Below, in pieces: positions 32 to 18,631 of a stretch of 20,665 nt of DNA. A program made the translations under genes and the position numbers. Below the pieces are notes generated by a model, which searched no databases, was not told the DNA's origin, and was given only the letters and a program-made list of their open reading frames with translations. Within the stretch, counting starts at the first letter, position 1, and each line of letters starts with the position of its first letter. Source of the stretch: a virus; IMG/VR virus record IMGVR_UViG_3300006924_000271, positions 1 through 20,665 of that record; one strand, written 5' to 3'.

Positions 32-81
32 GAAAGCTATTGCCTTCAATATAAGTATATTATAGCTCTAAAATAAGTCAA
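32..81 (-). promoter_or_regulatory. Promoter with 5' stem-loop (copy M1)
   Basis: On the minus strand TTGACT (76-81) and TATACT (54-59) are separated by 16 bp. After TATATT (48-53) comes a stem-loop GAAGGC-AATA-GCTTTC (47-32; 6 bp with one G-U) at the predicted mRNA 5' end. It drives the gene starting at position 3 and is divergent from the dnaN promoter. Confidence 0.75.
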
Positions 82-115
82 GGGGTTTCGGTTCTTTTTT
101 TAGACTCAAAAACCC

Positions 116-161
116 TTGACATTTTTAAGGTAAACAACATAATTAATACGAGGACGACCTC
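116..161 (+). promoter_or_regulatory. dnaN promoter with 5' stem-loop
   Basis: TTGACA (116-121), 16 bp, CATAAT (138-143), then TAATAC and a stem-loop GAGG-ACGA-CCTC (150-161). The distance from -10 box to stem-loop is 6 nt, as in the minus-strand copies. Transcription would start near 150 and leave a leader of about 50 nt before the ATG. Confidence 0.65.
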
Positions 162-201
162 AATTCTACATAACAAATTATAACAAAATATAAAAACAAC
201 A

Positions 202-1392
202 ATGACATTTCATATAAGATTTAGTGACTCAAGGGAATTAAAAGATGCACTAGCTCCGCATAATAGCTTTGCAAGTAAATTACACCTTGGAAGTTCACCG
301 CTTACAAAGTTTACAACAAAAGGGCATAGTGTTATTTTGACCTCTTTTAGTCAAAAGGGTTCTTATATAGATAACTTTATTGCCGAAGTTGAATATTGCT
401 TAATAGAGGGTGAGGGCGAGGCAGTAATACCTATTGATAAATTATTCAAGATAGCAACCAAACTTCCACAAGGCAAAGAAGTAGAGATGTGGACGGAGGT
501 TGATGAAAATCTAGACTTAGAAGATGATAACTCTATAACGGGTGAGTTAAAAATTAAATGCGGAAAGGCAAGTTTTAAATTACCATTATTTAATAGTGAT
601 TTATATCAACCAATTAGCTTTAACGAGGAAAAGATAGTATGTCAGATTGACATCGTTTCAAATAAGTTGCTTGAATGCCTTAAGAAAGTAGGAAGGTTTG
701 CCCCTACTAGTGTAAACTTTGCTACTTTTAATAGTTTTTACTTTAACTATGTGAATGAGGCTATTGATGTGGTTGCGACTAACGGTAAAAGTATTAATAT
801 TTGTGAGCTAATTGCAAGGGTTCGGACAAGCGATCCTGAAAACTCAAAAGCAATCGTTCCAACCGAGTCTATGAAAAAAGTAGAGACTGCATTGAGTAAT
901 TTACAATATGAAGGGGTGGTTGCTATACAAGTTACAGATAAACGGATTAAGTTTGTTGCGGGTGAATATTCATTTATCCTTAATCTTCTAAATGGAACTT
1001 ACCCAGATTATAAATCTTTAACTCCAACAGAGTTTAATAATCACTTTAATGTAAATCCAATGGTTGTAAAAGATGTTGTTGAAAGAAGTGTAATATTTGA
1101 TGAAGTAGAAGGGGTTCATGCGGTATTACTCAAAAAAACAGATGAGGGTTTATTACTTGCCAATCAAGCGATAAACAAACAAGGCTTTGAAGATACCTTA
1201 GATGTTGACCTAACTAATTGTGAAGATTTCAGCAGGAGCTACAATGCAAAGTATATCCTTGATACCTTAAGTGTTCAAAATGGAACTGATTGCAGAGTGG
1301 ATATACTTAAGGATGGAGCTTTTTTTATTAAAAGCAGAACAAAGGAGGGTATGTTGATGCAGTGTATGGTTATGCCGTTAAGATGGAGTTAA
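202..1392 (+). CDS. dnaN: DNA polymerase III sliding clamp (beta subunit)
   Basis: At 396 residues it has the length and three-domain layout of the bacterial beta clamp, the ring that tethers the replicative polymerase to DNA. Recognisable segments are the domain 2 stretch AIDVVATNGKSI, the domain 3 stretch around LLNGTYPDYKSLTP, and a C-terminal MPLRW close to the canonical MPMRL end. The start is the first ATG, in an A-rich context with no Shine-Dalgarno sequence. It lies just ahead of the capsid genes rather than beside dnaB, which is about 17 kb away. A viral clamp would be expected to load viral replisomes or recruit the host polymerase. The family call is firm; the viral role is inferred. 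Confidence 0.9.
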   Translation: MTFHIRFSDSRELKDALAPHNSFASKLHLGSSPLTKFTTKGHSVILTSFSQKGSYIDNFIAEVEYCLIEGEGEAVIPIDKLFKIATKLPQGKEVEMWTEVDENLDLEDDNSITGELKIKCGKASFKLPLFNSDLYQPISFNEEKIVCQIDIVSNKLLECLKKVGRFAPTSVNFATFNSFYFNYVNEAIDVVATNGKSINICELIARVRTSDPENSKAIVPTESMKKVETALSNLQYEGVVAIQVTDKRIKFVAGEYSFILNLLNGTYPDYKSLTPTEFNNHFNVNPMVVKDVVERSVIFDEVEGVHAVLLKKTDEGLLLANQAINKQGFEDTLDVDLTNCEDFSRSYNAKYILDTLSVQNGTDCRVDILKDGAFFIKSRTKEGMLMQCMVMPLRWS

Positions 1393-1435
1393 ACACGTGA
1401 AACCGTTGCAATCAAAGAACAGTATTTGTTTTAAA

Positions 1436-1852
1436 ATGAGTAGTCTACCATATCAATACTTTGTAAATCTGATTCGCAAACAAACTTTACTCTCTGAAGA
1501 GTTTACAGGGCTTTGCAAACAAAAGGATGTAAGTCAAAAAGACATTGTATATAAATATCGTGAGTTTGAAGATGTTATATTGGAATTGTGCTTGCATTAC
1601 TTATCTTGCAAAATAGATAAAGCTTTGTCCTATTATATTGTATCAAAGATAATTATTGCATTGGCAGAGAGTCAAGCATTTGATATACATTGCGTTCAGG
1701 ATTTTGAGTGGCTAGAGAATGCTTATCGCAAAGCAAAGCAACAACATTACAAAAGCAAAAATCCTTTTAAATATATATTTGTTAAACTCTTACCTTGTAA
1801 GTTCTTAACAAGGTGGAAACTAAAGGTCAACCCACTGTTTAATAGTGAATAA
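1436..1852 (+). CDS. Hypothetical protein, basic C-terminus
   Basis: I do not recognise a family. The ORF opens with a GTG at 1397, but the ATG at 1436 follows a TTTTAAA stretch more like other starts here, so I prefer a 138-residue product. The sequence is mixed helical-looking with several cysteines and ends in a basic tail (KFLTRWKLKV). It follows dnaN by a few bases and is probably cotranscribed with it. Confidence 0.6.
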   Translation: MSSLPYQYFVNLIRKQTLLSEEFTGLCKQKDVSQKDIVYKYREFEDVILELCLHYLSCKIDKALSYYIVSKIIIALAESQAFDIHCVQDFEWLENAYRKAKQQHYKSKNPFKYIFVKLLPCKFLTRWKLKVNPLFNSE

Positions 1853-1861
1853 CTCTAAAAT

Positions 1862-1909
1862 TTGACATTCAAATAATATATATTATTATGTGGTTGTATT
1901 AAATACAAC
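1862..1909 (+). promoter_or_regulatory. Capsid operon promoter with 5' stem-loop
   Basis: TTGACA (1862-1867), 16 bp, TATTAT (1884-1889). Downstream is an inverted repeat GTTGTAT-TAA-ATACAAC (1893-1909); if transcription starts at 1896 the RNA would begin with GTAT-TAA-ATAC. It would drive the protease and capsid genes. Confidence 0.6.
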
Positions 1910-1922
1910 TATATATAATATA

Positions 1923-2945
1923 ATGACACAAGAAAAAGTTCAAAAAGAATATACCATAAATCTAAAAGGTGTTAGAGAGGAAGTTGAAAAGGTCTCTTAT
2001 GTAAATCTTGAGACTCAAAAAGAAGAAGAACGATCGGAGTCTGTCGGTTATGTTGAAACCTACATCGCCGCTTTTGATAACAGAGACAAGCACAAGGAAA
2101 TAATATTACCAACAGCTTTTAATAAATCAATCAAGGGTATTACTCAACTGTTTGCTTTATTTCAGCATAACTTACCATATGATATTGAGTCAATAGATAA
2201 CATAGTTGGGGTTCATACTAATCTTGAAGTTGACGAATACGGTCTAAAGAGTCAAATGAAAATCTACCTTGACAACGATAAAAGAAAATACCTTTGGAAA
2301 TTAATAAAAGATGGGGTTTTAAATAAGATGTCTATTGGTATGATAGTGGAGGAGGTTAGCTATGATGAATCACAAGACACGACTTATATTATTAAGGCAA
2401 CACCAATTGAAGGTTCAGTTGTTTTGATACCCGCGAACGATAATGCAACAATTAACATTAAAAGCTTTGAAGTGAAAGAGAATTTTAATGAAGTTCCAAA
2501 AGAATTAGCAACAAAATTTGACAATCAAAATAAACAAGATAAAATGGAAGTAAATATTAACAATAATATAGAAAAAAATAATATGGAATTAAACACAGTT
2601 ATAAAGTCATTTGAAGATTTAAAAACAATTGAAAAGTTTTTAAAAGAAAAACTGGATATTTCACAAACAGAGGCTAAAACTCTTATATCAAAAATTAAAT
2701 TTTTTGGTGATATTGATTTAAAAAGCTTTGTAGAGGAAAAACTTGAAGAGTTTAAGGAGTCAATGGAAAATACATTTAATACAAAACTTGCCAAACTTGA
2801 AACAAAGGGAGGCGATCAAGATAACCAACCTACAGATGAACTTAAAGAGTCTGTGGAGGTTAAAAGTAATCAATGCGATGTTGATTACAATTCAATCTGT
2901 AAGTTTGCTCAAGAGCAACTGGCGGATATTTTTAAAATTAAATAA
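1923..2945 (+). CDS. HK97-family prohead protease (peptidase U35), long C-terminal extension
   Basis: This is the capsid maturation serine protease that trims the capsid protein inside the prohead. Residues 40-70 (from ATG 1923) hold the typical VGYVETYIAAFDNRD and LPTAF segments. The likely catalytic His82 is in LFQHN and the likely catalytic Ser137 in NKMSIGM. A GTG at 1890 is in frame but lies inside the promoter, so ATG 1923 is preferred, giving 340 residues. The protease domain ends near residue 180; the remaining 160 residues are charged and helical, like a fused scaffold. An in-frame internal ATG at 2583 could yield that part alone (see findings). The capsid gene follows directly. Confidence 0.88.
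   Translation: MTQEKVQKEYTINLKGVREEVEKVSYVNLETQKEEERSESVGYVETYIAAFDNRDKHKEIILPTAFNKSIKGITQLFALFQHNLPYDIESIDNIVGVHTNLEVDEYGLKSQMKIYLDNDKRKYLWKLIKDGVLNKMSIGMIVEEVSYDESQDTTYIIKATPIEGSVVLIPANDNATINIKSFEVKENFNEVPKELATKFDNQNKQDKMEVNINNNIEKNNMELNTVIKSFEDLKTIEKFLKEKLDISQTEAKTLISKIKFFGDIDLKSFVEEKLEEFKESMENTFNTKLAKLETKGGDQDNQPTDELKESVEVKSNQCDVDYNSICKFAQEQLADIFKIK
2518..2545 (+). promoter_or_regulatory. Possible internal promoter inside the protease gene
   Basis: TTGACA (2518-2523), 16 bp, TAAAAT (2540-2545). The box pair, spacing and the bases TTGACAATCAAA match the promoter at 11002-11029. In-frame ATG codons follow at 2544 and 2583, the second in an AATAATATGG context like the tail tube gene. AT-rich coding sequence can produce such matches by chance. 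Confidence 0.35.
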
Positions 2946-2965
2946 TCAACACATCATAAATAAAT

Positions 2966-4270
2966 ATGTCACAAGCAGAAGCATCGCAAGTGCAAAAAGA
3001 GCTCAACCAAACATTAGGAGCAATTAAATCCTTTCAAGAGGAGCAAGCAAAAGAATTAAAAGACAGCAAAGAAGTCTCGGGTGAGCTGAATGCTAAATTT
3101 GAAAAAGCTACAAATGAATTAGTAGAATTACAAAAGAAGTATGCAACACTAGAGCAGAGACTTGAACTTGAAACTAAATCGCAAGACGATGACGGAGTAG
3201 AGGCTATTAGTGATTACAAAAACTTTGTAAGAAAAGGACTTGCTACTAACAACAAGGATGCTGGTTATACAGCAGAATACAAAGAAAAGCTTTCTTCGGC
3301 GGTAAGGGCAAGCTTGTCTAAAAAATATAAAGGCAAACTTCCACAAGCTGAAATAGAAGAAATGGCTAAAAAGTTTGTATCTACTGATATTGCAGGTCAA
3401 GGTGGTTTATTACTAGCTCCAGCTATCATTGAAGATATAGAAGAGGCAAGAGCTTTTAATGAAACTGGTCTTTTGTCTGTATCGGATCAAGAAACTGTAA
3501 GAGGTCAGCAAGCTATTATTACTTACTCTTACACTCGTCCTGAATCTTATCTTTCAATTGAAAGAGAGGAAGATTCTAATGAAAGTGAAATGAACTTTGC
3601 ACAAATAGAGGCTCAAATGCAAAAAATTGTATCAAGAGTTCCTATTTCAAGAGAGGCTATGGACTCACCTTACAACTTTCAAAACAGAGTTGAGAACGCA
3701 ATCTTAAGAGACTTTGGAGGTAAAAAAGGTTATCTTGCAGTTCACGGCTCTAAAAAAGTAAAAGGTCTTAACTCTTACGAACTAACAACTGGTGGTTTCG
3801 AAAGAGGTAAAGTTGGCTCTGTTGAATACACAGGTTCTACTTTTGGATATAAAGACTTACTCAAGCTAACAACTGGAGCATTGGCAAGTAAATACCAACT
3901 AAATGCAAAACTTCTTGTAAGTAGAGCATCACTTGTTGCTTTACAAACTATGGTTGACGATGCTAACCGCCCTGTATTTCAAATTGTATTAGCTCCAAAC
4001 GGTCGTTCATTCCTATGGGAAGGTGTTGAGGTTGTAATAGACGACTTCCTTGGTATAAACAAGGATGAGTCAGCAATTGATTTATCTGCCTCTGGTGCAA
4101 GAGCGGTATACTACGGAGACTTCTCACAAGGTTATATCTCACTTAACAACCCACAAATTGGTATGGTTCCTGACAACACAAAGGTAGGAAAATACATAGT
4201 GCAGGCTTATACTTACACAGGGGGTCTTGTAAAAGATTACGATGCAATTAAATGTCTTGTTAAATCTTAA
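2966..4270 (+). CDS. Major capsid protein, HK97 fold
   Basis: A 434-residue shell protein. Residues 1-75 form a charged heptad-rich coiled coil (around QVQKELNQTLGAIKSFQEEQ), the scaffolding delta domain that the upstream protease would remove. The shell domain begins around GQGGLLLAPAIIEDI, followed by segments typical of HK97-type capsids (SRVPISREAMDSP, RNPVF-like NRPVF, GVEVVIDDFL). Length and order (protease then capsid) fit HK97-type phages. It starts at ATG 2966 with the A-rich context CATAAATAA. The family is clear; the cleavage site cannot be placed by eye. Confidence 0.92.
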   Translation: MSQAEASQVQKELNQTLGAIKSFQEEQAKELKDSKEVSGELNAKFEKATNELVELQKKYATLEQRLELETKSQDDDGVEAISDYKNFVRKGLATNNKDAGYTAEYKEKLSSAVRASLSKKYKGKLPQAEIEEMAKKFVSTDIAGQGGLLLAPAIIEDIEEARAFNETGLLSVSDQETVRGQQAIITYSYTRPESYLSIEREEDSNESEMNFAQIEAQMQKIVSRVPISREAMDSPYNFQNRVENAILRDFGGKKGYLAVHGSKKVKGLNSYELTTGGFERGKVGSVEYTGSTFGYKDLLKLTTGALASKYQLNAKLLVSRASLVALQTMVDDANRPVFQIVLAPNGRSFLWEGVEVVIDDFLGINKDESAIDLSASGARAVYYGDFSQGYISLNNPQIGMVPDNTKVGKYIVQAYTYTGGLVKDYDAIKCLVKS

Positions 4271-4306
4271 TTGTAATTATTAATATTAATATATATAAAA
4301 AATAAA

Positions 4307-4735
4307 ATGTCTATAGCAGTAGAAAAAATATCAGAGGCAAAAACACTTTTAGCTTCTGGAGTTGAGGCAATTAATGCAGATGCAGACTCTAACTCTTCAA
4401 TCATACTTGATCTTGAAAATTATAATTTTGCAGAGTTTGCTTTAACTTGTTCAGCTTATACAGCAGGTGATGTAACTCCATTTATTACAATTGGAGATGA
4501 GTCAAATTTATCAGATGGAGTTAAGTTGACAGATGCTAGCTTTAATGTTGTTAATGAGCTAGGTAACAATAAACTAGGCTTTTCAAATGCTAAAGTATCT
4601 GGACTTAATGAGGTAAAAACTTTTGGTCTTATCCGTAATAAAAGATATGCAAGGGTAGGCTTTACAGGTGCAAACAGTGCTAATTTATCAGTTTTGGCAA
4701 CTGTAAGAGTATCAGTAACAGATCAGCCTGCCTAG
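4307..4735 (+). CDS. Capsid-associated (decoration-like) protein, putative
   Basis: 142 residues, mostly short beta-prone stretches with many Ala, Ser, Thr and Asn. The pattern of an N-terminal DLENYNFAEFALTCSA segment and a C-terminal RNKRYARVGFTG followed by LSVLATVRVSV resembles small head proteins commonly encoded straight after HK97 capsid genes, which probably decorate the shell. It lies 36 bp after the capsid gene and one base before the next ATG (TAGTATG). Position is the stronger evidence; the decoration role is inferred. Confidence 0.55.
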   Translation: MSIAVEKISEAKTLLASGVEAINADADSNSSIILDLENYNFAEFALTCSAYTAGDVTPFITIGDESNLSDGVKLTDASFNVVNELGNNKLGFSNAKVSGLNEVKTFGLIRNKRYARVGFTGANSANLSVLATVRVSVTDQPA

Positions 4736-4736
4736 T

Positions 4737-4979
4737 ATGTCAAAATACACAGCAACTCAAGATTTTGGTTTTTACACAAAGCAGAATGATTATTTTTGCT
4801 TTAAAAAGGGTGATGTAATACCTTTTGAGTCAAGAGATGATATAAATAGACTTCTTAACAAAGGATTGGCAAGGGAAGTAGAAGAGCAACCTATTAAGAA
4901 AGCTGAATATTCAAATGCCATACCTTCAAAAGAAGTATCACCCGCACCAAAAAAAAGATATAAAAAGAAAGCAGATTAA
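4737..4979 (+). CDS. Small head-region protein with lysine-rich tail
   Basis: 80 residues. The N-terminal half reads like a small beta barrel (YTATQDFGFYTK, then FKKGDVIPF), a pattern common in short proteins encoded between capsid and connector genes. The last 15 residues are lysine-rich (KKRYKKKAD). It starts one base after the previous stop, so translation is likely coupled. No firm family. Confidence 0.6.
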   Translation: MSKYTATQDFGFYTKQNDYFCFKKGDVIPFESRDDINRLLNKGLAREVEEQPIKKAEYSNAIPSKEVSPAPKKRYKKKAD

Positions 4980-4986
4980 TTAGTTT

Positions 4987-5709
4987 ATGAGTAATACATA
5001 TTGTTATGAGGTTGATAATTTTATAAGATCGGATAACACTGTATTACTTGCAAACGACTCAACAAACCCCGTCCCATTGGAAGAGGTTAAAAGTTTTCTA
5101 AAAATATATAATGACGATCAGGATGTATATTTAGAAAGTTTGCAAAAACTAGCAATTCAAACAATACAAGACTTTACGGGCATTGATATAACTATCAAGA
5201 CATATAAGAGCTTTTTAGATGGTTTTCCTTGCAACAACTCATACAAGACTATAACTTACTGCTCAAGCTATAACAAGCAAGCATATGGCTTGCAAATACC
5301 AATGACACCATATGTCAATAATACACTAATTGTTAAATATATAGACATAGAAGGTATAGAGCAAACTGCAGACTTGAACGACTGGAATATTAAGAGATAC
5401 GATGTCCGTTCAAAAAAGTATTCTTATGCAATACCAAAAGTAGATGAGGCAACGGGTTTGCCAAAATACCCTGCTACATTACAACAGCCCGATGCCGTTA
5501 CACTTGAATATCAAGCTGGAATTACAAGCGACGGAGCTAACTTACCTATTGATATAAAACAAGCTATACTATGCCAAATGAACTGGTTAAGAGAAAAATA
5601 CGGTGATGAGTGTGGTGATTGTGTAGATGGTTCAATATCTTTTATGGTTCAGCCTCTTATGCGGGCTTTTATAATAAATCCTAGTTATTCTTATAGTCGG
5701 GTAGGTTGA
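4987..5709 (+). CDS. Head-tail connector protein, gp6-like
   Basis: 240 residues. The N-terminal segment PVPLEEVKSFLKIYNDDQDV, then a helix with LAIQTIQDFTGI, is typical of HK97 gp6/QLRG-type connectors that form the ring under the portal. The C-terminal part (LPIDIKQAILCQMNWLREKYG) matches the usual end helix. Its gene order between capsid and head-closure genes agrees. The last 29 bases overlap the end of the convergent methyltransferase gene, so no terminator separates them. Confidence 0.75.
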   Translation: MSNTYCYEVDNFIRSDNTVLLANDSTNPVPLEEVKSFLKIYNDDQDVYLESLQKLAIQTIQDFTGIDITIKTYKSFLDGFPCNNSYKTITYCSSYNKQAYGLQIPMTPYVNNTLIVKYIDIEGIEQTADLNDWNIKRYDVRSKKYSYAIPKVDEATGLPKYPATLQQPDAVTLEYQAGITSDGANLPIDIKQAILCQMNWLREKYGDECGDCVDGSISFMVQPLMRAFIINPSYSYSRVG

Positions 5710-6445
5710 GTTCTTGATGTATTCTTTTATTTGATATATCCACACAGTCTTGATTAGAATCACAACCTAAAAACTTTCTATTTGTAATTATACTTGCAAT
5801 TGCAGTTGAGCCACTACCAGCAAACGGATCTAGTACAGTATCGCCCACATTACTTGATAACTGTATTAGTATTTTTAATAACTCTACATTTTTTTGATTA
5901 GGATGTAGATTTTTTTTAGTGTTTGCCTTACTGTTTGCAAATACAAAATCCCAAAAATTAGGGTATGAATATGTATAAGGCTTCGGCTTTGTATTTCTTT
6001 TGTCTTTTAACCAAGCCTCACTCGTCTTGATAAAGTCTACTTCATTAAGTTTTTTTGATTTACCTTTTGACAAAAATAAAATGTGTTCTGTCCTGTAATA
6101 GAAGTTATTTTTTAAATACTGTCCATTGCAATAAGAAGGTAAATTGATTATGTTTTGAAATATAAAGTCACTGTCTTCAATTGCATTTAACCATAACCGC
6201 AAGCTTTTCGTTCCTGTAAATATATAGCAATGTGAGTTATCTTTTAATACATTATACATTGAGTTTAACCACAGAGGGGCTTGTTGTGTAATATAATCTT
6301 GTGAGTCGTTATATATGTCTGTTTTAAAATTTACCCCATACGGGGGATCGGTGACTATCAAATTCACAGACTCTTTTTCTAGTGAGCTTGTGAATTTAAT
6401 GCAGTCTTGATGTATAACTTGATTATATGGTGGCTTAAATTCCAT
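5681..6445 (-). CDS. DNA methyltransferase (DPPY class, N6-adenine or N4-cytosine)
   Basis: 254 residues. It uses S-adenosylmethionine to methylate an exocyclic amino group in DNA. The catalytic motif IV TDPPYGVNF is at residues 32-40, ahead of the cofactor motif LDPFAGSGST (205-214), with HPNQK (181-185) just before it. That order is the beta class of amino-methyltransferases; DPPY is commoner among adenine enzymes. No partner endonuclease is beside it, so it looks like an orphan enzyme protecting phage DNA from host restriction. Its start overlaps the preceding gene by 11 bp; it is last in a three-gene minus-strand operon. Confidence 0.88.
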   Translation of the reverse strand: MEFKPPYNQVIHQDCIKFTSSLEKESVNLIVTDPPYGVNFKTDIYNDSQDYITQQAPLWLNSMYNVLKDNSHCYIFTGTKSLRLWLNAIEDSDFIFQNIINLPSYCNGQYLKNNFYYRTEHILFLSKGKSKKLNEVDFIKTSEAWLKDKRNTKPKPYTYSYPNFWDFVFANSKANTKKNLHPNQKNVELLKILIQLSSNVGDTVLDPFAGSGSTAIASIITNRKFLGCDSNQDCVDISNKRIHQELNLPDYKNN

Positions 6446-6677
6446 TGCCTGCTAAAATTTTATCAAAAGAGTTGACTATATGCTTTGCATCTGCAAGGGT
6501 ATATCTGTGCGGTTCTTTAATGAAGATTTTGTAAACTAAATCGTGCTTTGTATATAAGTTCATTGTTATCTTCCATAGTCCCATTTGTTGTAAAACATAT
6601 TTTATCTGTTCTCTAGACAGGTTATCAAAATAATTCTTAATTAATTCAAGTTTTAAAGTGCGTTCTGTTTTAATCAT
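6435..6677 (-). CDS. Hypothetical protein, methyltransferase operon
   Basis: 80 residues, predicted mostly helical (LELIKNYFDNLSREQIKYVL), with no family I recognise. It overlaps both neighbours (8 bp upstream, 11 bp downstream), so translation is probably coupled with the methyltransferase. Confidence 0.7.
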   Translation of the reverse strand: MIKTERTLKLELIKNYFDNLSREQIKYVLQQMGLWKITMNLYTKHDLVYKIFIKEPHRYTLADAKHIVNSFDKILAGNGI

Positions 6678-7035: not shown

Positions 7036-7065
7036 TGTAATTTGTAATTTGTTAATAAAAGTTAT

Positions 7066-7115
7066 GAAACCTACTGGCTTCAATATAAGTATAAATAACT
7101 TTTAGAATAAGTCAA
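7066..7115 (-). promoter_or_regulatory. Promoter with 5' stem-loop (copy M2)
   Basis: Minus strand: TTGACT (7110-7115), 16 bp, TATACT (7088-7093), TATATT, then stem-loop GAAGCC-AGTA-GGTTTC (7081-7066, 6 bp with one G-U). It drives the methyltransferase operon. Confidence 0.8.
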
Positions 7116-7123
7116 GGGGTATT

Positions 7124-7151
7124 TTGCTTTTTTTAGTTTTTTTGTTATAAT
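7124..7151 (+). promoter_or_regulatory. Plus-strand promoter for head-closure genes
   Basis: TTGCTT (7124-7129), 16 bp, TATAAT (7146-7151), about 22 bp before the ATG at 7173. The -10 region (TTTTTTGTTATAATTAA) is nearly identical to that at 8481-8497. No 5' stem-loop is visible. It restarts structural transcription after the minus-strand insertion. Confidence 0.6.
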
Positions 7152-7172
7152 TAAGAAAACTATTCACATACT

Positions 7173-7565: not shown

Positions 7566-7571
7566 CTTTTT

Positions 7572-8363: not shown

Positions 8364-8413
8364 ACTAGTTTTAAGTCTGTTATTTTTGCTTATGATTTGT
8401 TAGTAAAAGTTTC

Positions 8414-8458
8414 AACCCTTGGTTAATATAAGTATATAATACTTGTGAGATAAGTCAA
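8414..8458 (-). promoter_or_regulatory. Promoter with 5' stem-loop (copy M3)
   Basis: Minus strand: TTGACT (8453-8458), 16 bp, TATACT (8431-8436), TATATT, then stem-loop AACC-AAG-GGTT (8424-8414). The stem bases differ completely from those of copies M1, M2 and M6, but stem and position are kept. Confidence 0.75.
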
Positions 8459-8465: not shown

Positions 8466-8493
8466 TTTACTTTTTTAAATTTTTTGTTATAAT
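8466..8493 (+). promoter_or_regulatory. Plus-strand promoter for the 8515 gene
   Basis: TTTACT (8466-8471), 16 bp, TATAAT (8488-8493), followed by an A-run and the ATG at 8515. It is nearly identical around the -10 box to the promoter at 7124-7151. It has no 5' stem-loop. Confidence 0.6.
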
Positions 8494-8514
8494 TAAAAAA
8501 AATACTTATATACC

Positions 8515-10897: not shown

Positions 10898-10926
10898 TTT
10901 AATTTTGATTGATTAATAAAATATAT

Positions 10927-10976
10927 GAAGCTCATTGGCTTCAATATAAGTATAAACCGACTACAAAAAATGTCAA
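10927..10976 (-). promoter_or_regulatory. Promoter with 5' stem-loop (copy M4)
   Basis: Minus strand: TTGACA (10971-10976), 16 bp, TATACT (10949-10954), TATATT, then stem-loop GAAGC-CAATGA-GCTTC (10942-10927). Confidence 0.8.
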
Positions 10977-11001
10977 GGGTTTTTAAAACTATTATTAAAA
11001 T

Positions 11002-11048
11002 TTGACAATCAAACAATATAAAGTAAAATAGAATTGTTATTAATAATT
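11002..11048 (+). promoter_or_regulatory. Promoter for DUF2635-sheath genes
   Basis: TTGACA (11002-11007), 16 bp, TAAAAT (11024-11029), then a possible stem AATTGTT-ATT-AATAATT (11032-11048, one G-U). Here the stem begins nearer the -10 box than in other copies, so the stem-loop is less certain. Confidence 0.6.
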
Positions 11049-11058
11049 ATATATTGAA

Positions 11059-11307: not shown

Positions 11308-11309
11308 AT

Positions 11310-12845: not shown

Positions 12846-12999
12846 GAAAAGAACGGTTGCTATTGCCTTTACTGCACTATTTATCCTTGCGGGGTATAGT
12901 GCAAAAAGGGATTGTCCTAAGAGGGAGGTGGTTGGGGATTTTATTATTCAAACAGATCGCAACTGCGTGCCAATTAGTATAGAAGAAATTAAAAAATAA
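12838..12999 (+). CDS. 53-residue exported or membrane peptide with two cysteines
   Basis: A short ORF whose ATG overlaps the last 8 bases of the sheath gene in another frame. It starts MLKKRTVAIAFTALFILAGY: a basic start, then about 15 hydrophobic residues, then a polar stretch with two Cys (KRDCPKRE and DRNCVPIS). That is the layout of a signal peptide or single membrane anchor followed by a short periplasmic or external domain. There is no Cys at the lipobox position. It lies between sheath and tube genes, which are normally adjacent. Function unknown; lysis, entry exclusion and a virion role are all possible. Confidence 0.55.
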   Translation: MLKKRTVAIAFTALFILAGYSAKRDCPKREVVGDFIIQTDRNCVPISIEEIKK

Positions 13000-13024
13000 G
13001 TAATATCAATAGATAAAAAATAAT

Positions 13025-13426
13025 ATGTCAAATATAAATTTAAGTCAACAAGGTATCATCTTGACAAGATCAAATGGCGACTCAATAGCAATAAATGATC
13101 TAATACCCGACTCAATCAATGTTACGAGAGGTGGGGCAAAGGGAGCTATGATAACAACGGCAGGGGCTCCAATGTCAACGCTTGATTACAGTGAGAATTT
13201 TGCAACAATAACCTTTACAATACCGTCATCAACTCTTGAAAGTGAGACAGTTTCTTTTGTAAATGAAATGTATAACGAGTTTTTAGCTGGCAATAAAGGA
13301 ACTTTAAGAGTTCTGGGGACGACTCTTGAATTTGATGGTATATTTCCTGAGAAAATACTAGATATAACAACGGGTAATCAAACAATAGACTTGACTTTTT
13401 ACGGCAATCCTAATACGACTGCCTAA
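13025..13426 (+). CDS. Tail tube protein, putative
   Basis: 133 residues. Tube genes follow sheath genes in Mu-like and other contractile phages, and size and beta-rich composition (SINVTRGG, FATITFTIPSSTLESETVSF, LEFDGIFPEKI) fit a small tube protein forming the inner channel. No single diagnostic motif is visible, so position carries most of the weight. The stop overlaps the convergent gene's stop by 4 bp. No tape measure or baseplate genes follow in the window. Confidence 0.65.
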   Translation: MSNINLSQQGIILTRSNGDSIAINDLIPDSINVTRGGAKGAMITTAGAPMSTLDYSENFATITFTIPSSTLESETVSFVNEMYNEFLAGNKGTLRVLGTTLEFDGIFPEKILDITTGNQTIDLTFYGNPNTTA

Positions 13427-13782
13427 ATATAGTCTTCCATTCTATCAAAAAGATTGCCTTCAACTTTGTGATAATTGGGTAGTAGGGCAAAATATTCTTT
13501 GTTATCCTCATCTCTGACTTCTCCAAAAACTTCTTCATAATCAGCTTTTATAACAGACAAAGCCCAAGCAACTTTTTTATTGTGTTGTACTAGGTTTTCT
13601 GCTTTTACCTCGTGATTAATTGTAATCGCACTTCCAATTACAATTAGAAAGCACAAAAAGAATAAATGAAAGCCCCTAAATGTATAAGCTCCAATCTGCT
13701 TTTTGTAAAGCATTATCTTGTGGTAAGATAGTGGGATCATTGCAATGCCAAAAACAATTGCTATAATTTGTAGTGTTGTCAT
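13423..13782 (-). CDS. Hypothetical membrane protein, two N-terminal helices
   Basis: 119 residues with two hydrophobic segments, about residues 4-20 (LQIIAIVFGIAMIPLSY) and 39-55 (LFFLCFLIVIGSAITIN), joined by a basic loop, then an acidic soluble tail (YEEVFGEVRDEDNKE). It is probably an inner-membrane protein. No family recognised. It is second in a two-gene operon from copy M5. Phage membrane proteins of this size are often superinfection-exclusion factors, but nothing here establishes that. Confidence 0.65.
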   Translation of the reverse strand: MTTLQIIAIVFGIAMIPLSYHKIMLYKKQIGAYTFRGFHLFFLCFLIVIGSAITINHEVKAENLVQHNKKVAWALSVIKADYEEVFGEVRDEDNKEYFALLPNYHKVEGNLFDRMEDYI

Positions 13783-13794
13783 TTTAATTTGTGA

Positions 13795-14022
13795 TTAGTT
13801 AATAATAGAAAAGTTATAAACTTTAAGTTTGTTGTTTACAAATTTGTAAGTAAATTCATAACCTGCATCAAGTAATTTTGTTATAGCCTCTTGTGGTTTG
13901 TTTGTATTGATTATGAAGTCTGATAGCTCGCTTGAAACCGTTGTATCAAGTTTTAAAGTTCTTTCAATGTAAGAAGCGTTGTCAACTTGCTGAGCCGTTG
14001 TTAAGTGAGTTCTGTAAAACAT
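13795..14022 (-). CDS. Hypothetical protein, copy M5 operon
   Basis: 75 residues (MFYRTHLTTAQQVDNASYIE...). It looks like a small alpha/beta fold ending in strands FTYKFVNNKLKVYNFSI. No family recognised. It lies directly downstream of promoter copy M5, and the membrane protein gene follows 13 bp after. Confidence 0.65.
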   Translation of the reverse strand: MFYRTHLTTAQQVDNASYIERTLKLDTTVSSELSDFIINTNKPQEAITKLLDAGYEFTYKFVNNKLKVYNFSIIN

Positions 14023-14050
14023 TTTGTTTGTGATTTGTTGATAAAAAAGT

Positions 14051-14101
14051 AAGGCTTCGTTGCCTTCAATATAAGTATATAGTGATTGTGGAATAAGTCA
14101 A
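14051..14101 (-). promoter_or_regulatory. Promoter with 5' stem-loop (copy M5)
   Basis: Minus strand: TTGACT (14096-14101), 16 bp, TATACT (14074-14079), TATATT, then stem-loop AAGGC-AACGAA-GCCTT (14066-14051). The -35 box overlaps the end of the upstream gene (stop at 14098-14100). Confidence 0.8.
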
Positions 14102-14637
14102 GGGGTTTTTGTCTTTTTTTTATTCATTTTAAATCTATCTATATCGTTTAATAGCATATCGTGAACCTCATCGTCCATGTAGTCTGTTCTTGCTCCCCCA
14201 AACTCTTTTAAAAACTCTTCAGCCTCTTGCTCTGTTAAATCGCTTTCTTGCATGATAGTGTCTATATCGTAGAATTGTCCTACTAGGTAGGTATTCCTGC
14301 GGGTGAGCTCAAGCCAAAGCTCCCAGTCCTCTGCATCTTTTAGTAGTTTATCGTTTTTTGGCTCTTCTATTATTACACTACTTACATTCAATGCCTGCAT
14401 TAGCTCTAGTAGTCTAGCTATACTTCTATAATATATATCGTCCTCAGGTTCAGCACTTATTCTTAACTCTTCTAGTGCATCACTGTCAATCGTATCTATA
14501 CTAAATATATAATACAGTAAATTTCCACAGGCATCGTTTACTGTGTAATAATACTCATTCTGTATTAAAAAGCTTTCCATCTTTTCAATACCCTTCGCAT
14601 CGTAATTAGAAGGAAGAAATTCTTTAATAGTTTTCAT
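14098..14637 (-). CDS. Hypothetical acidic protein, paralogue of 14969-15259
   Basis: 179 residues. Residues about 18-52 contain MESFLIQNEYYYTVNDACGN then LLYYIFSIDTI, nearly the same as a segment of the 96-residue protein two genes upstream in the operon. The rest is acidic and helical, with LTEQEAEEFLKEFGGA. No known family. Being last of five genes from promoter copy M6, it is probably a duplicated and extended form of the shorter protein. Confidence 0.7.
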   Translation of the reverse strand: MKTIKEFLPSNYDAKGIEKMESFLIQNEYYYTVNDACGNLLYYIFSIDTIDSDALEELRISAEPEDDIYYRSIARLLELMQALNVSSVIIEEPKNDKLLKDAEDWELWLELTRRNTYLVGQFYDIDTIMQESDLTEQEAEEFLKEFGGARTDYMDDEVHDMLLNDIDRFKMNKKKTKTP

Positions 14638-14646
14638 TGTTTTATA

Positions 14647-14952
14647 TTATGATTTATCAAAAATTAAAAGCATTGTTGCATCATTCAAGTCTAATGCTTT
14701 TATGATTTTTTGTATTTCAATAGCAACTTGATAATTATGCTCGGTATTGTGTATTATAGTCTCTACAAACTCTTCAAGCTCATCAATATCAAACATTACT
14801 TTACCATCTTCTGCATCATTGAAATATACCCATTCTTTAAAAAGGTCAACATTGATATCATCCCAAACATCTTGAATTTGTATATCACTCATACATTTAA
14901 TAACCTTAATATCCTCTGGGTGGTCAATATAGTGTTGTGTTTTTTTTAGCAT
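14647..14952 (-). CDS. Hypothetical acidic protein, M6 operon
   Basis: 101 residues, strongly acidic (IDELEEFVETIIHNTEHNY), with aromatic and hydrophobic residues. No family recognised. It lies between the two paralogues 14098-14637 and 14969-15259, with 9- and 16-bp gaps. Confidence 0.65.
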   Translation of the reverse strand: MLKKTQHYIDHPEDIKVIKCMSDIQIQDVWDDINVDLFKEWVYFNDAEDGKVMFDIDELEEFVETIIHNTEHNYQVAIEIQKIIKALDLNDATMLLIFDKS

Positions 14953-14968
14953 TTTGTTATTTATTTTG

Positions 14969-15259
14969 TTAATAATTTGAAATTAAAAGGTAATCGGTGC
15001 TGTGTGTATTACTCATCCTTTCCACAATCTTCATAAGTAAAGTGTATTTACCGCCAAACTCTATTTCCATTTTTGCCAATTGTGAGAGTTCTATTGTGTC
15101 TATGCTAAATATATATAATAATATATTACCGCAAGAGTCTCGCATCGTATAGTAATAATCATTTTCTATTAAAAAAGTCTCTATCTCCTTGACCATCTCC
15201 TGATCCCAATCTGATAAAAAACTTTCTATTTTTTGTATTTTTTGTGTAGTTTCTGACAT
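14969..15259 (-). CDS. Hypothetical protein, short paralogue in M6 operon
   Basis: 96 residues. The core IETFLIENDYYYTMRDSCGN then ILLYIFSIDTI matches the 179-residue protein of the same operon. A short helical start and end surround it. No family recognised. The close spacing implies cotranscription. Confidence 0.68.
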   Translation of the reverse strand: MSETTQKIQKIESFLSDWDQEMVKEIETFLIENDYYYTMRDSCGNILLYIFSIDTIELSQLAKMEIEFGGKYTLLMKIVERMSNTHSTDYLLISNY

Positions 15260-15288
15260 TTTATTTTTTTATTTTGTTAATATTGTTA

Positions 15289-15627
15289 TTAAATACCTAT
15301 TTTTATTTTATCGTTATTGAGGGCTTTTCTTACCCTCTCTTCCGCCCCCTCACCACATTTAAATATTCCAACTTTTTTTAATTTAGGTAGTAGCTTTAAA
15401 GGTGTATAGTCTAGATCGGGCATGTGATATAGTAGTATTGTTTCTAGGTTCGCCATCACTTCAATACCATCAAGACTCTTTAGTGTATTAGAATAAAGGG
15501 TAGAAAAATTAAAAAAATTTATACCTTTCACATACTCATCTAAACAAGCAGGTGTTCTTTTGCAAAGAACTCTATCATTTAAGTTTCTCTGGTGAGATAT
15601 ATTTAAAATTTCTTTTATTGTAATCAT
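15289..15627 (-). CDS. Short leucine-rich-repeat-like protein
   Basis: 112 residues. The stretch SNTLKSLDGIEVMANLETIL and the following PLKLLPKLKKVGIF show two or three leucine-rich-like repeat units of about 22-24 residues, suggesting a small binding protein. The Lys-rich C-terminus (KALNNDKIKIGI) is polar. The partner is unknown. It is preceded by an ATTAACAAATCAAAA leader. Confidence 0.6.
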   Translation of the reverse strand: MITIKEILNISHQRNLNDRVLCKRTPACLDEYVKGINFFNFSTLYSNTLKSLDGIEVMANLETILLYHMPDLDYTPLKLLPKLKKVGIFKCGEGAEERVRKALNNDKIKIGI

Positions 15628-15669
15628 TTTATTTTTGATTTGTTAATAATTTTTATTCCCTAACAAGGA

Positions 15670-15891
15670 TTAATCTATATATTCTATATTATATCCAGTT
15701 AGTTCGAACCACTCGCCACCCTCTACTTGATATTTGTAAACTTTTTTATTTTCAGCATAAGAGTTTATAACCTTTTTACCTTCAAGGACATTTTTACCTT
15801 TGACCCAAAGTGAGTAATACTTCTCACCTTTTTCTCTAGTTTTTACCACACCTCTTTTATAAGTATAGCATGTTTCATATTTACTTGTCAT
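15670..15891 (-). CDS. Hypothetical small basic protein, first gene of M6 operon
   Basis: 73 residues with many Lys and Tyr (KRGVVKTREKGEKYYSLWVK), beta-prone. No family recognised. It is directly downstream of promoter copy M6 and carries the full conserved start block. Confidence 0.65.
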   Translation of the reverse strand: MTSKYETCYTYKRGVVKTREKGEKYYSLWVKGKNVLEGKKVINSYAENKKVYKYQVEGGEWFELTGYNIEYID

Positions 15892-15920
15892 TTTAGTTTT
15901 GATTTGTTAATAAAAGTGTT

Positions 15921-15933
15921 TGAGCTAAGCTCA
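15921..15933. repeat. Short palindrome in the M6 leader
   Basis: TGAGCTAAGCTCA (perfect about a central base) lies between the 5' stem-loop and the start codon of the M6 operon. As RNA it could form TGAGC-TTA-GCTCA, a second leader hairpin; as DNA it could be a binding site. No other copy is seen. Confidence 0.4.
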
Positions 15934-15943
15934 GTAAAAGTTT

Positions 15944-15993
15944 GAAACCTATTGGCTTCAATATAAGTATAAATGACTTTTAGAGTAAGTCAA
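15944..15993 (-). promoter_or_regulatory. Promoter with 5' stem-loop (copy M6)
   Basis: Minus strand: TTGACT (15988-15993), 16 bp, TATACT (15966-15971), TATATT, then stem-loop GAAGCC-AATA-GGTTTC (15959-15944, one G-U). It drives the five-gene operon 15891-14098. Confidence 0.8.
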
Positions 15994-15996
15994 TGG

Positions 15997-16773
15997 TTAA
16001 AGTGTGATTAATTGACTTATTTTTTTCACTTTAATTTGATTGAGTTCACCCGTTGCCATTATTTCGGCAAAAATCTTTTGACCCTTTGGGGTTACCAATC
16101 CCTGCATGTGCTTTGTCTTGTTTGTTGTGTTTTCTGTAATCTTAACTTCAAAAAGTCCATTGTCAATATATTTTTGATATGGTAGGTTTTTCTTGTCTTT
16201 TGATTTGATATAATCACTTTCCCTTAACCACTCAATAAACTTATTTGGCTTTACCCCTAACAAAGTTCCCGTCTTTTGATAACCAAGGCTTTTTTCAATA
16301 CTCACCCGTTCAAGTAGTGTTGTTTTTTCCTCTTGACTCTTAATTAATTTTTGTGTGAGTTCTTGATTAAGCTGTTCTTTTTCTTTTAACTCTTGACCTG
16401 CTTTTAATAACAGATCGGCAACTGTTAATTCAAGTGGTTTTTGTTGCTCTATATATTGCCTTTCCACTTCAATGAAATATTCCCTTACCTACTTGCCCTT
16501 TACCGTCCTTTGCATCATTGCAATGTTTTTTGCCGTGTCAATTGTTAGAAAATACTCAATACCAATTTGACCTGTTTTTGAAAGCTCTACTTTTTGGGTG
16601 ACCTTAATATAGTCTTGATCTTCTATAAAACCCTGAAGAAATCTTTTTATCCAAGCAGAAAAGTCTTTCTTTGATTTTAAATTTTTATGTAATTCCCTTG
16701 CACTTACGGTATTTTTAATATCACCAACAAAGTTATTACTCTTAATATTAAAAAGTTGTATATTTTTTTTCAT
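15997..16773 (-). pseudogene. AntA-ANT antirepressor interrupted by an in-frame TAG
   Basis: Read in one frame this is a 258-codon antirepressor. The AntA domain (residues 15-94: SARELHKNL, FSAWIKRFLQ, EYFLTIDTAKNIAMMQRTV) continues directly into the ANT/KilAC domain (LGYQKTGTLLGVKPNKFIEW, GLVTPKGQKIFAEI). A single TAG at 16489-16491 splits it after KGK; the codons on its far side still read VREYFIEVERQY, the conserved continuation of AntA. The stop replaces a position where Gln is common, so C-to-T (CAG to TAG) is the simplest cause. The downstream half has a possible GTG start (16467). It is either a recent knock-out or a gene relying on amber suppression. Antirepressors bind and inactivate phage repressors. 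Confidence 0.75.
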
Positions 16774-16792
16774 AATCTTGTTTATATATTAA

Positions 16793-17419
16793 TTATTTAT
16801 TTAATAATTTTTTAATTACATAGCCTAATAATGCCTTAACTACATAACCACAATTCCACAACATACCATCCTCTTGTCTTACTCTGACAAACTCACAACT
16901 AATTTCATTTATTATGTCCTGCTCTCTTTTAACATCTTCCTCTTGTTGGTTTTTATGATGCCCTTCGTCATATTCAATAGCTATATTTAAGTCTTTTATA
17001 TAGTAATCTATATTGTAATTTAATACTTTATGTTGTCTTTGACCTTTAATATCAAGAGGTTCTAATATTTTTTCTAGTGTATCAAAGAATTCTATTTCTG
17101 CTCTAGTATTTAATATTGTATAATCGTCTAGTGCTTGTAAAAGCTGTCTTTTTAATTCAATGGGTGCATATGTTTTTTGAATGCAACTAATGGCAACTGG
17201 AATGGTTAAAAAGTATTCTTTTAAAGTTGCATTATTTCCCTTCCTTTTTTTATGAAGCCTAATATAGTCTTGATTTTCTGTAAAGTCTTCAAGATATTTC
17301 TTAACCCAAGTGGAATAATCTTGTTTACTCTCCAAGCTTTTGTGAAGTTCCCTTGCGTTTACAGTCTGCTTGACATTGTTGTTAAATTGTTTAGACTCTA
17401 ATTGAATTAGTTTATCCAT
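16793..17419 (-). CDS. AntA-domain protein fused to a PD-(D/E)XK-like nuclease domain
   Basis: 208 residues. Residues 15-80 are an AntA antirepressor domain (NARELHKSLESKQDYSTWVK, EYFLTIPVAIS) closely similar to the adjacent gene. Instead of an ANT domain, residues about 105-185 have the order of DUF559/Vsr-like nucleases: helix around E110, RQHKV, IDYYIKDLNIAIEYDEGHH with D138, E149 and D151, then a basic helix and CEFVRVRQ. Nuclease activity is inferred from that pattern. The ATG at 17419 follows a 187-nt leader holding a C4-like RNA, so expression is probably controlled at RNA level. It could act as antirepressor, nuclease or both. Confidence 0.7.
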   Translation of the reverse strand: MDKLIQLESKQFNNNVKQTVNARELHKSLESKQDYSTWVKKYLEDFTENQDYIRLHKKRKGNNATLKEYFLTIPVAISCIQKTYAPIELKRQLLQALDDYTILNTRAEIEFFDTLEKILEPLDIKGQRQHKVLNYNIDYYIKDLNIAIEYDEGHHKNQQEEDVKREQDIINEISCEFVRVRQEDGMLWNCGYVVKALLGYVIKKLLNK

Positions 17420-17447
17420 TTTCTTACTTTTAAATTAATTATTATTT

Positions 17448-17512
17448 TGGTGGGGAAGTTGCTATTTCTAGCAATTGAACCACGGGATAACATACAAACC
17501 CCAAACCTCCCC
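17448..17512 (-). ncRNA. C4-like antisense RNA (tRNA-like, probable RNase P substrate)
   Basis: On the minus strand the 65-nt segment begins GGGGAGG (17512-17506), which pairs over 7 bp with CTTCCCC (17458-17452), followed by A and CCA (17451-17448). This is an acceptor stem with a CCA end. Inside, GGG/CCC closes a loop containing TATGTTAT; GTGGTTCAATT is free; TTGCTA-GAAA-TAGCAA forms a GNRA-capped hairpin. There is no anticodon or T-arm, so it is not a tRNA. P1/P7 C4 and P4 CI RNAs are known to be cut by RNase P at such stems and to silence antirepressor or lytic genes. It lies directly in front of an antirepressor gene, and two parts are complementary to the leader at 17559-17586. Family assignment is by architecture, not by alignment. 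Confidence 0.62.
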
Positions 17513-17558
17513 AAAAAGAAAATGTTTTTTTGAATGGAAAATATTCATTAAGATGTCA

Positions 17559-17589
17559 TATGTTATTAATCCGTGGAGGCTCAATTCCA
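17559..17589 (-). promoter_or_regulatory. Target hairpin complementary to the C4-like RNA
   Basis: Minus strand: GTGGA-ATTGAGCC-TCCAC (17589-17572) forms a hairpin whose loop is complementary to GGTTCAAT of the RNA (one G-U). CCACGG (17576-17571) and ATAACATA (17566-17559) are also exact complements of CCGTGG and TATGTTAT in the RNA, in the same order. Placed upstream of the RNA, it is in the position of seqA of P4. Confidence 0.6.
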
Positions 17590-17591
17590 CC

Positions 17592-17642
17592 GTAGGTTCT
17601 ACCTACAAATTAATAATATAACAAAATTGATAATTGTCAATA
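17592..17642 (-). promoter_or_regulatory. Antirepressor promoter with 5' stem-loop and operator-like palindrome
   Basis: Minus strand: TTGACA (17635-17640), 16 bp, TATTAT (17613-17618), 6 nt, then stem-loop GTAGGT-AGA-ACCTAC (17606-17592). The spacing matches the other module copies, so transcription likely starts near 17606. A near-palindrome ATTGATAATTGTCAAT (17626-17641, plus strand) covers the -35 box and could be a repressor operator. Confidence 0.68.
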
Positions 17643-17659
17643 GCTCTACTCTTCAATAT

Positions 17660-17720
17660 ATGATATTATATAACTGGAAAAAGTCAAGCTAAAATATCGT
17701 AATATTTACCAATAAGTCAA
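17660..17720 (-). promoter_or_regulatory. Upstream promoter-like sites of the antirepressor leader
   Basis: Minus strand: TTGACT (17682-17687), 16 bp, TATCAT (17660-17665), followed by ATATTGAAG as in the consensus leader but with no stem-loop. A further TTGACT (17715-17720) with a poor -10 (GATATT, 17693-17698) lies just upstream. With the site at 17635 these make three stacked -35 boxes ahead of the antirepressor. Confidence 0.45.
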
Positions 17721-17770
17721 GGGTTTTGGATCGTTTTTTTGGTTTTTTTAGCATCTTATTTTTTAATTGA

Positions 17771-18319
17771 TTAGTTTTTACATACAACAACATCACCTCT
17801 TATAGTAAAACCCATCAAACCCTCAGGGTCTGCAAAGTATAAAGTCATTATACCGCTATCTTTGGGGTGTTGCCAATAAATACTATTATAGCTTTCTATC
17901 ATTTTAGAAAATGCCTGTGTAAGTTTATTAATAGCGTCTATATTTAATAAAACCTGCTTATCCATTGATTGGTTTTCCCTGCATAATCTAGTTTGAACAC
18001 TTTTGTAATCTGGTAGTTTTACATTGCATTTTGGTATTGTATCAAGCTTGTAGTTGTCTTTAATCTGTTTAACAACGGAATCAATATGTGCTTTAGGTAT
18101 TGCATGACTTCCAACTTCTATATTTTGAAAATATTGCAACATGTCCTCACATGTAATCTCAGCGTTTAATAAAGCCTTACCGATGGTTGAAAAAATAGAA
18201 ACTCTGTCCTCTTCTTTGACTATGTTGATATAGTTGAACGGATCGCCTTCTTCTGGTCTAGTGATTTTTTTAAATTGCTGAAATATTGCAATTAGTCTTT
18301 TGTGTTTTGCTTTTGACAT
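17771..18319 (-). CDS. Hypothetical protein, M7 cassette
   Basis: 182 residues. The N-terminal half is basic and helical (KHKRLIAIFQQFKKITRPEE); the C-terminal part ends in strands (GIMTLYFADPEGLMGFTIRG). Low-level helix-rich content and mixed charge; no family recognised. It is a single-gene cassette divergent from dnaB, so a replication-related or early role is possible by position only. The start has the ATTAACAAATCATAA leader. Confidence 0.65.
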   Translation of the reverse strand: MSKAKHKRLIAIFQQFKKITRPEEGDPFNYINIVKEEDRVSIFSTIGKALLNAEITCEDMLQYFQNIEVGSHAIPKAHIDSVVKQIKDNYKLDTIPKCNVKLPDYKSVQTRLCRENQSMDKQVLLNIDAINKLTQAFSKMIESYNSIYWQHPKDSGIMTLYFADPEGLMGFTIRGDVVVCKN

Positions 18320-18354
18320 ATTATTTATGATTTGTTAATAAAAAAAGAAGTAAA

Positions 18355-18409
18355 GAAGTAGCAACTGCTAACTTCATATATATATTATAGCAACTACAAA
18401 ATAAGTCAA
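18355..18409 (-). promoter_or_regulatory. Promoter with 5' stem-loop (copy M7)
   Basis: Minus strand: TTGACT (18404-18409), 16 bp, TAATAT (18382-18387), 6 nt, then a long hairpin with arms GAAGT/ACTTC and AGC/GCT around AGTT (18375-18355, one bulged base). It drives the 17771-18319 gene. Confidence 0.7.
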
Positions 18410-18536
18410 GGGTTTTGGGTCGTTTTTTTGGTTTTTTTCGGTCTTTTTTAATAATACATATATTACAAAAAATACCTTTTTAAATATTAAAGGGTTTATT
18501 TATTTTAAATTTTGTTTAATATATTAAGGGGTGGTG

Positions 18537-18561
18537 CGTGGTTTAAAAAAAATAAACCACG
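18537..18561. repeat. Perfect 9-bp inverted repeat with A7 loop in the divergent region
   Basis: CGTGGTTTA (18537-18545), seven A, TAAACCACG (18553-18561). It lies between promoter copy M7 and the dnaB promoter, 23 bp upstream of the dnaB -35 box. No T-run follows on either strand, so an operator or replication-linked site is more likely than a terminator. The rest of 18410-18649 is AT-rich, with no ORF. Confidence 0.6.
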
Positions 18562-18583
18562 TTATTATTATCACTTTTTTCCC

Positions 18584-18631
18584 TTGACAAATTTCATTTT
18601 TAATACAAAATATAGTGTTAGCAAAACTAAC
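18584..18631 (+). promoter_or_regulatory. dnaB promoter with 5' stem-loop
   Basis: TTGACA (18584-18589), 16 bp, CAAAAT (18606-18611), 5 nt, then stem-loop GTTAG-CAAAA-CTAAC (18617-18631). The -10 box is weak, but the geometry matches the other copies and -35 is perfect. The ATG follows 18 bp later in an A-rich context. Confidence 0.6.

What the first reader, a model, noticed from the sequence alone, without database searches (positions are those of the whole stretch)
32..18631. Recurrent promoter module: -35, exactly 16 bp, -10, about 6 bp, then 5' stem-loop
At least seven minus-strand copies and dnaN, dnaB and antirepressor copies share the geometry. Stem bases change (GAAGGC/GCTTTC, GAAGCC/GGTTTC, AACC/GGTT, AAGGC/GCCTT, GAGG/CCTC, GTTAG/CTAAC, GTAGGT/ACCTAC) while pairing is preserved. 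That argues for selection on structure at the mRNA 5' end. It may protect against 5'-dependent decay or serve as a binding site for a phage or host factor. It recalls the start-associated repeats of cluster K mycobacteriophages, but is tied to promoters.
Basis: partly seen in the sequence, partly recalled or inferred. Interest (0 to 1): 0.75.

Follow-up and report, generated by a model that had tools for sequence, protein, structure and literature searches.

The report
Phage messages starting with a hairpin
In this uncultured phage, nearly every promoter is built so that the messenger RNA should begin, at its very first base, with a small hairpin whose letters differ from gene to gene while the pairing is kept; most likely the hairpin shields the messages from decay that starts at the 5' end.

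Summary
The window is a piece of a 42.7-kb phage contig. There, 25 sigma-70-like promoters (TTGAC, mostly a 16-bp spacer, then -10) lie before genes. 18 of them have a hairpin whose 5' edge lies 4-7 nt after the -10; dinucleotide shuffles give 1.5 on average, at most 6. The edge sits exactly 6 nt after the -10 in 15 of 19 hairpin promoters, on the expected +1 base. A pyrimidine-purine initiator falls there in 13 of 14 distinct copies. The 3' edge and centre vary more. At least ten different 4-bp stems occur, with changes on both sides at every pair; internal G-U pairs occur (5) and A-C mismatches do not (0). TTGAC sites that serve no gene, other phages, and two late-type promoters lack the pattern. 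The best reading is a 5'-terminal mRNA stem-loop, as in ompA, papA and T7 gene 10, made a near-universal part of the promoter, probably to block 5'-end-dependent decay. A separate A-rich start motif (ATTAACAAATCAAAA..ATG) follows and also occurs without promoters. Limits: one genome, no relatives found, unknown host, no transcription-start data, no function test.

The parts
32..81 (-). Module upstream of the 134-aa gene: -35 TTGACT 81-76, -10 TATACT 59-54, hairpin GAAGGC-AATA-GCTTTC 47-32
116..161 (+). dnaN module: -35 TTGACA 116-121, -10 CATAAT 138-143, hairpin GAGG-ACGA-CCTC 150-161
1862..1909 (+).
7066..7115 (-). Module of 137-aa gene: TTGACT 7115, TATACT, hairpin GAAGCC-AGTA-GGTTTC 7081-7066
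8414..8458 (-). Module of 115-aa gene: TTGACT 8458, TATACT, hairpin AACC-AAG-GGTT 8424-8414
10927..10976 (-). Module of 85-aa gene: TTGACA 10976, TATACT, hairpin GAAGC-CAATGA-GCTTC 10942-10927
11002..11048 (+). Weak module of 82-aa/sheath operon: TTGACA 11002, TAAAAT, weak AATTGTT-ATT-AATAATT 11032-11048
   Evidence: does not pass the energy cut
14051..14101 (-). Module of 75-aa gene: TTGACT 14101, TATACT, hairpin AAGGC-AACGAA-GCCTT 14066-14051 (one unpaired 5' nt)
15944..15993 (-). Module of 73-aa gene: TTGACT 15993, TATACT, hairpin GAAGCC-AATA-GGTTTC 15959-15944; a second hairpin GAGCTTAGCTC follows in the leader
17592..17640 (-). Antirepressor module: TTGACA 17640, TATTAT, hairpin GTAGGT-AGA-ACCTAC 17606-17592
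18355..18409 (-). Module of 182-aa gene: TTGACT 18409, TAATAT, hairpin GAAGT-(T)-AGC-AGTT-GCT-ACTTC 18375-18355 (one bulge)
18584..18631 (+). dnaB module: TTGACA 18584, CAAAAT, hairpin GTTAG-CAAAA-CTAAC 18617-18631
7122..7172 (+). Contrast: late-type promoter TTTTTTGTTATAATTAA before the 130-aa gene, no hairpin
8466..8514 (+). Contrast: late-type promoter TTTTTTGTTATAATTAA before the 361-aa gene, no hairpin

Best explanation
Most host-RNA-polymerase (sigma-70-type) promoters of this phage carry a short inverted repeat whose left arm starts at the transcription start. Each transcript would therefore begin with a 4-8 bp stem-loop with zero or one unpaired 5' nucleotide, followed by an unstructured A-rich leader and start codon. 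The blunt, paired 5' end most likely hinders 5'-end-dependent decay: access of a pyrophosphohydrolase of the RppH type and 5' sensing by RNase E, or 5' exonuclease RNase J, whichever the host has. This would lengthen the life of early and replication mRNAs. Shown by the sequence: promoter geometry, position and excess of the hairpins, and covariation of the arms. Inferred: that +1 is at the stem base, that the RNA folds this way in the cell, and that protection from decay is the benefit.
For: 18/25 promoters against 1.45 in shuffles; with >=5/6 matches in both hexamers, 14/16 in this phage against 5/37 in T4, HTVC010P, phi11 and IMG/VR control contigs. The 5' edge is fixed (15/19 exactly 6 nt after -10, SD 0.8) while centre (SD 1.4) and 3' edge (SD 2.5) vary. 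A YR initiator step at that base in 13/14 distinct copies, against 6/24 at control sites. Ten stem classes with both-side changes at all four pairs, covariation score 1.19 against 0.33 shuffled and at most 0.27 when slid (the 100% pairing itself is by selection). Five internal G-U pairs, no A-C. First four nt paired with P about 0.9-1.0 in most leaders at 37 C. Known precedent: 5' stem-loops stabilise mRNA because RppH and RNase E need single-stranded 5' ends (PMC3997798); the T7 phi10 transcript has the same blunt +1 hairpin, and the T7g10 stem-loop raised expression and mRNA abundance in C. necator (PMC6146998).
Against: No mapped transcription starts. Host and its ribonucleases unknown. Some hairpins are weak at 37 C (dnaB, 238-aa gene, g24658, 115-aa gene), though most fold more stably at 15 C. 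Four promoters before genes lack it, as do the two late-type promoters. One genome only; covariation is among copies in that genome, not among relatives.
Confidence: 0.62

Rival explanations
1. RNA site for a protein or for RNA polymerase itself: a nascent hairpin read by a phage or host factor, as in lambda nut (boxB) or HK022 put antitermination, acting in cis on early transcripts.
For: Position just after early promoters and phage-wide use; the hairpin is the first RNA to leave polymerase.
Against: Loops and stems vary (loops AATA, AGTA, CAATGA, AAG, CAAG, ACGA, AGA, AGT, TTA, TAA, AACAAAA), leaving shape alone to be read; put and nut elements are long or sequence-specific (own knowledge); no Rfam match.
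Confidence: 0.15
2. Leader insulation: the hairpin acts mainly on translation or promoter escape (keeps the 5' end from pairing with the start region, or sets initial transcription), not on decay.
For: The A-rich leader and start motif that follow are mostly unstructured.
Against: Operon-internal genes have the start motif without a hairpin; insulation does not require an edge fixed at +1.
Confidence: 0.13
3. DNA operator: a dyad overlapping +1 that a repressor dimer binds, switching the early promoters.
For: Dyads over the start site are classical operator positions; an antirepressor gene is present.
Against: No shared half-site among at least ten stem classes; the dyad centre moves while the 5' edge stays; G-U but no A-C departures, which a DNA palindrome would not favour.
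Confidence: 0.06
4. Promoter-proximal attenuator or terminator.
For: The mechanical scan flags several of the hairpins, including w81, w7115, w10976, w14101 and w15993, as terminator-like because T-rich sequence follows.
Against: Stems are short and weak, the T runs are broken and set back, many copies (dnaN, antirepressor, GAGC and AACCC types) were not flagged, and nearly every promoter would terminate within about 30 nt.
Confidence: 0.04

Closest known systems
T7 gene 10 (phi10) 5' mRNA stem-loop
   Same: Hairpin starts at +1 with no unpaired 5' base (GGGAGACC-ACAAC-GGUUUCCC); used as an mRNA-stabilising element (PMC6146998).
   Different: T7 uses its own polymerase and +1 GGGAGA is part of its promoter; here host-type promoters, many different stems, almost every promoter.
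E. coli ompA and papA 5' stem-loops
   Same: 5'-terminal stem-loop close to the mRNA end, where base pairing blocks RppH and RNase E (review PMC3997798).
   Different: Single cellular genes, tested by experiment; here a phage-wide feature, untested.
SAS/ESAS repeats of cluster K mycobacteriophages
   Same: Repeated elements upstream of many non-structural phage genes: an inverted repeat plus a start-codon-associated motif.
   Different: ESAS arms share a consensus and their departures do not support RNA pairing (PMC3203893); here arms covary, sit at +1 of a promoter, and the start motif is A-rich with no Shine-Dalgarno.
lambda nut boxB / HK022 put
   Same: RNA hairpins in early phage leaders.
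   Different: Those are specific recognition or polymerase-modifying elements; stems and loops here are not conserved (from own knowledge of nut and put).

Membership tests
5'-terminal mRNA-stabilising stem-loops (ompA, papA, T7 g10 type) | Stem begins at or within a few nt of the mRNA 5' end | tested here: inconclusive
   Met on the predicted +1: edge exactly 6 nt after -10 in 15/19, YR initiator 13/14. The real start is not mapped.
5'-terminal mRNA-stabilising stem-loops (ompA, papA, T7 g10 type) | Structure rather than sequence is what is kept | tested here: met
   Both-side changes at all four outer pairs, ten stem classes; excess over shuffles
5'-terminal mRNA-stabilising stem-loops (ompA, papA, T7 g10 type) | Loss of pairing shortens mRNA half-life | not testable with these tools
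   Needs an experiment
SAS/ESAS of cluster K phages | 13-bp GGGATAGGAGCCC-like SAS next to the start codon | tested here: not met
   Motif here is ATTAACAAATCAAAA..ATG
SAS/ESAS of cluster K phages | 17-bp imperfect inverted repeats with a shared half-site, not supporting RNA pairing | tested here: not met
   Arms 4-8 bp, no shared half-site, arms covary (PMC3203893)
DNA operator dyad | Conserved half-site and fixed half-site spacing | tested here: not met
   Ten stem classes, loops of 3-7 nt (one bulged case longer), centre varies
Known RNA family (Rfam 15) | Match at gathering score | tested here: not met
   No match in window, L019 or L020

The most novel reading that the evidence does not exclude
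Probability: 0.12. Interest if true: 0.8.

Novelty: new variant of a known kind. Interest (0 to 1): 0.52.

Why it matters
Stabilising 5' stem-loops are known from single genes. A phage that builds one into nearly every sigma-70-type promoter, with a different stem each time, would show that 5'-end protection can be a genome-wide strategy of a virus using the host polymerase. It also gives a simple test (hairpin 6 nt after -10) that can be run on other phages, and a ready set of natural stems for a decay experiment.

Tried and rejected
Relatives: scans of viral contigs with DnaB, DnaN, tail sheath, capsid and ThyX proteins returned only the same phage plus distant DnaB genes on contigs sharing no other gene. 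The promoter motif is absent from genome contigs and the capsid protein has no relative found there. L010 and L011, found by the promoter pattern, look like T4-like phages and are taken as chance matches. One wider DNA pattern was mistyped and rerun: nearly all hits were promoters directly before GIY-YIG-like endonuclease genes (MKSGVYKITN...), not this module. Host: nearest MetK on plasmids is about 49% identical, best in Alphaproteobacteria, too weak to name a host. MAFFT put dnaB and 1862 out of register, so arms were counted on anchored arm-only strings. Operator and attenuator readings rejected as in rivals.

Full report
What the window is. The window (20,665 b) is bases 134-20798, reversed, of IMG/VR contig IMGVR_UViG_3300025084_000068 (G001, 42,702 b, 32% GC), with two mismatches. 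It is a tailed phage with tail sheath, HK97-type capsid, prohead protease, DnaB, DnaN and an AntA antirepressor. G001 adds genes that read as MetK, ThyX, ribonucleotide reductase and SSB, and a Sak-like annealing protein. No tRNA genes and no Rfam families were found.

The observation. A mechanical list of TTGAC + 15-18 bp + -10 sites near gene starts in the whole contig gives 25 promoters. Of these, 18 have an uninterrupted hairpin of -1 kcal/mol or better with its 5' edge 4-7 nt after the -10; 500 sets of dinucleotide shuffles give 1.45 on average and 6 at most. A nineteenth (18409) has a bulged stem, GAAGTTAGCAGTTGCTACTTC, that folds at -6.5 kcal/mol. One more lies cut off at the contig end, GAGCCAAGGCTC. 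Promoter-like intergenic sites with no gene close behind them (G001 7751, 7768, 22911, 24796) lack a hairpin that passes the cut at this place. Other phages tested in the same way show 5 of 37 (looser promoter definition), against 14 of 16 here.

Anatomy. The 5' edge is fixed: exactly 6 nt after the -10 in 15 of 19, with 13 of 14 distinct copies having pyrimidine then purine at that step, the usual initiator. The centre and 3' edge move with stem and loop length. So the repeat is anchored at the start of transcription, not as a dyad. At least ten outer 4-bp stems occur: GTTA, GAAG (with CTTC or TTTC), GTAG, AACC, GAGG, ATAA, AAAG, GAGC, GTTG. All four pairs show changes on both sides; covariation score 1.19 against 0.33 in shuffles and at most 0.27 in slid versions. 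Because stems were picked for pairing, the 100% pairing is by construction; the honest chance test is. In a search that allowed one internal non-Watson-Crick pair of each kind, G-U occurred in five hairpins and A-C in none, which points to RNA of this strand, though some of the five share ancestry.

What follows the hairpin. An A-rich motif, ATTAACAAATCAAAA then AAAATG, precedes many starts, also of genes inside operons without promoter or hairpin. No Shine-Dalgarno is seen in those leaders. It is a separate, start-associated element. Two late-type promoters, TTTTTTGTTATAATTAA, have no hairpin, so the hairpin belongs to the TTGAC class.

Function. From established knowledge, RppH and RNase E need single-stranded 5' ends, and a 5'-terminal stem-loop stabilises mRNA (PMC3997798). 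T7 gene 10 mRNA starts with such a blunt hairpin, and adding the T7g10 stem-loop raised mRNA and protein in C. necator (PMC6146998). The geometry here, zero or one unpaired 5' base in most copies, is what such protection needs. This step is inference: the host, its nucleases and the real start sites are unknown, and several stems are marginal at 37 C.

Compared with the cluster K repeats. There, the authors saw little support for RNA pairing between the arms and proposed DNA-binding sites (PMC3203893). Here the arms covary and sit at +1. The resemblance is in layout only.

Limits. One genome, seen in two overlapping records. No relatives in viral contigs or genome contigs. Literature searches found no report of a phage-wide +1 hairpin, but only open-licence papers were searchable and the search was by words. 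The call that the pattern is new is therefore provisional.

Noticed in passing
G001 (L018-L020), e.g. gene starts at G001 5172, 5540, 5847, 7017, 21203, and minus-strand genes ending at 40516 and 42431: Start-associated motif ATTAACAAATCAAAA..AAAATG (or close variants) before many genes, also operon-internal ones; no Shine-Dalgarno in these leaders.
   Followed up: partly
window 7122-7172 and 8466-8514 (+): Two near-identical late-type promoters TTTTTTGTTATAATTAA without hairpin.
   Followed up: partly
window 15997-16773 (-): An AntA-like 94-aa ORF and a 156-aa ORF appear to lie in the same frame, parted by a TAG codon followed by VREYFIEVERQYIEQQ, so possibly one gene with an in-frame amber stop; the same split appears in G001. 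Read by eye only.
   Followed up: partly
window 16793-17419 (-): Antirepressor with an AntA domain joined to a DUF559/endonuclease-like domain.
   Followed up: no
L019 18267-19889 (-): Ribonucleotide reductase large subunit carries an intein-like insert (begins CVTPETEIITKEYG).
   Followed up: no
L019 12607-13599 and 14419-15357 (-): Two proteins made of ATFxxxF pentapeptide-like repeats, with identical promoter leaders AACCCAAGGGTT.
   Followed up: no
window 15918-15935 region (-) and L019 9165-9180 region (-): A second leader hairpin GAGCTTAGCTC in the 73-aa gene module is identical to the 5' hairpin of the G001 29209 module, hinting at module recombination.
   Followed up: no
L024-L051: GIY-YIG-like endonuclease genes in many viral contigs share a promoter-like sequence TTGACATTACCATAGAATTTGTATATACTTATATT ending directly at the ATG.
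   Followed up: no
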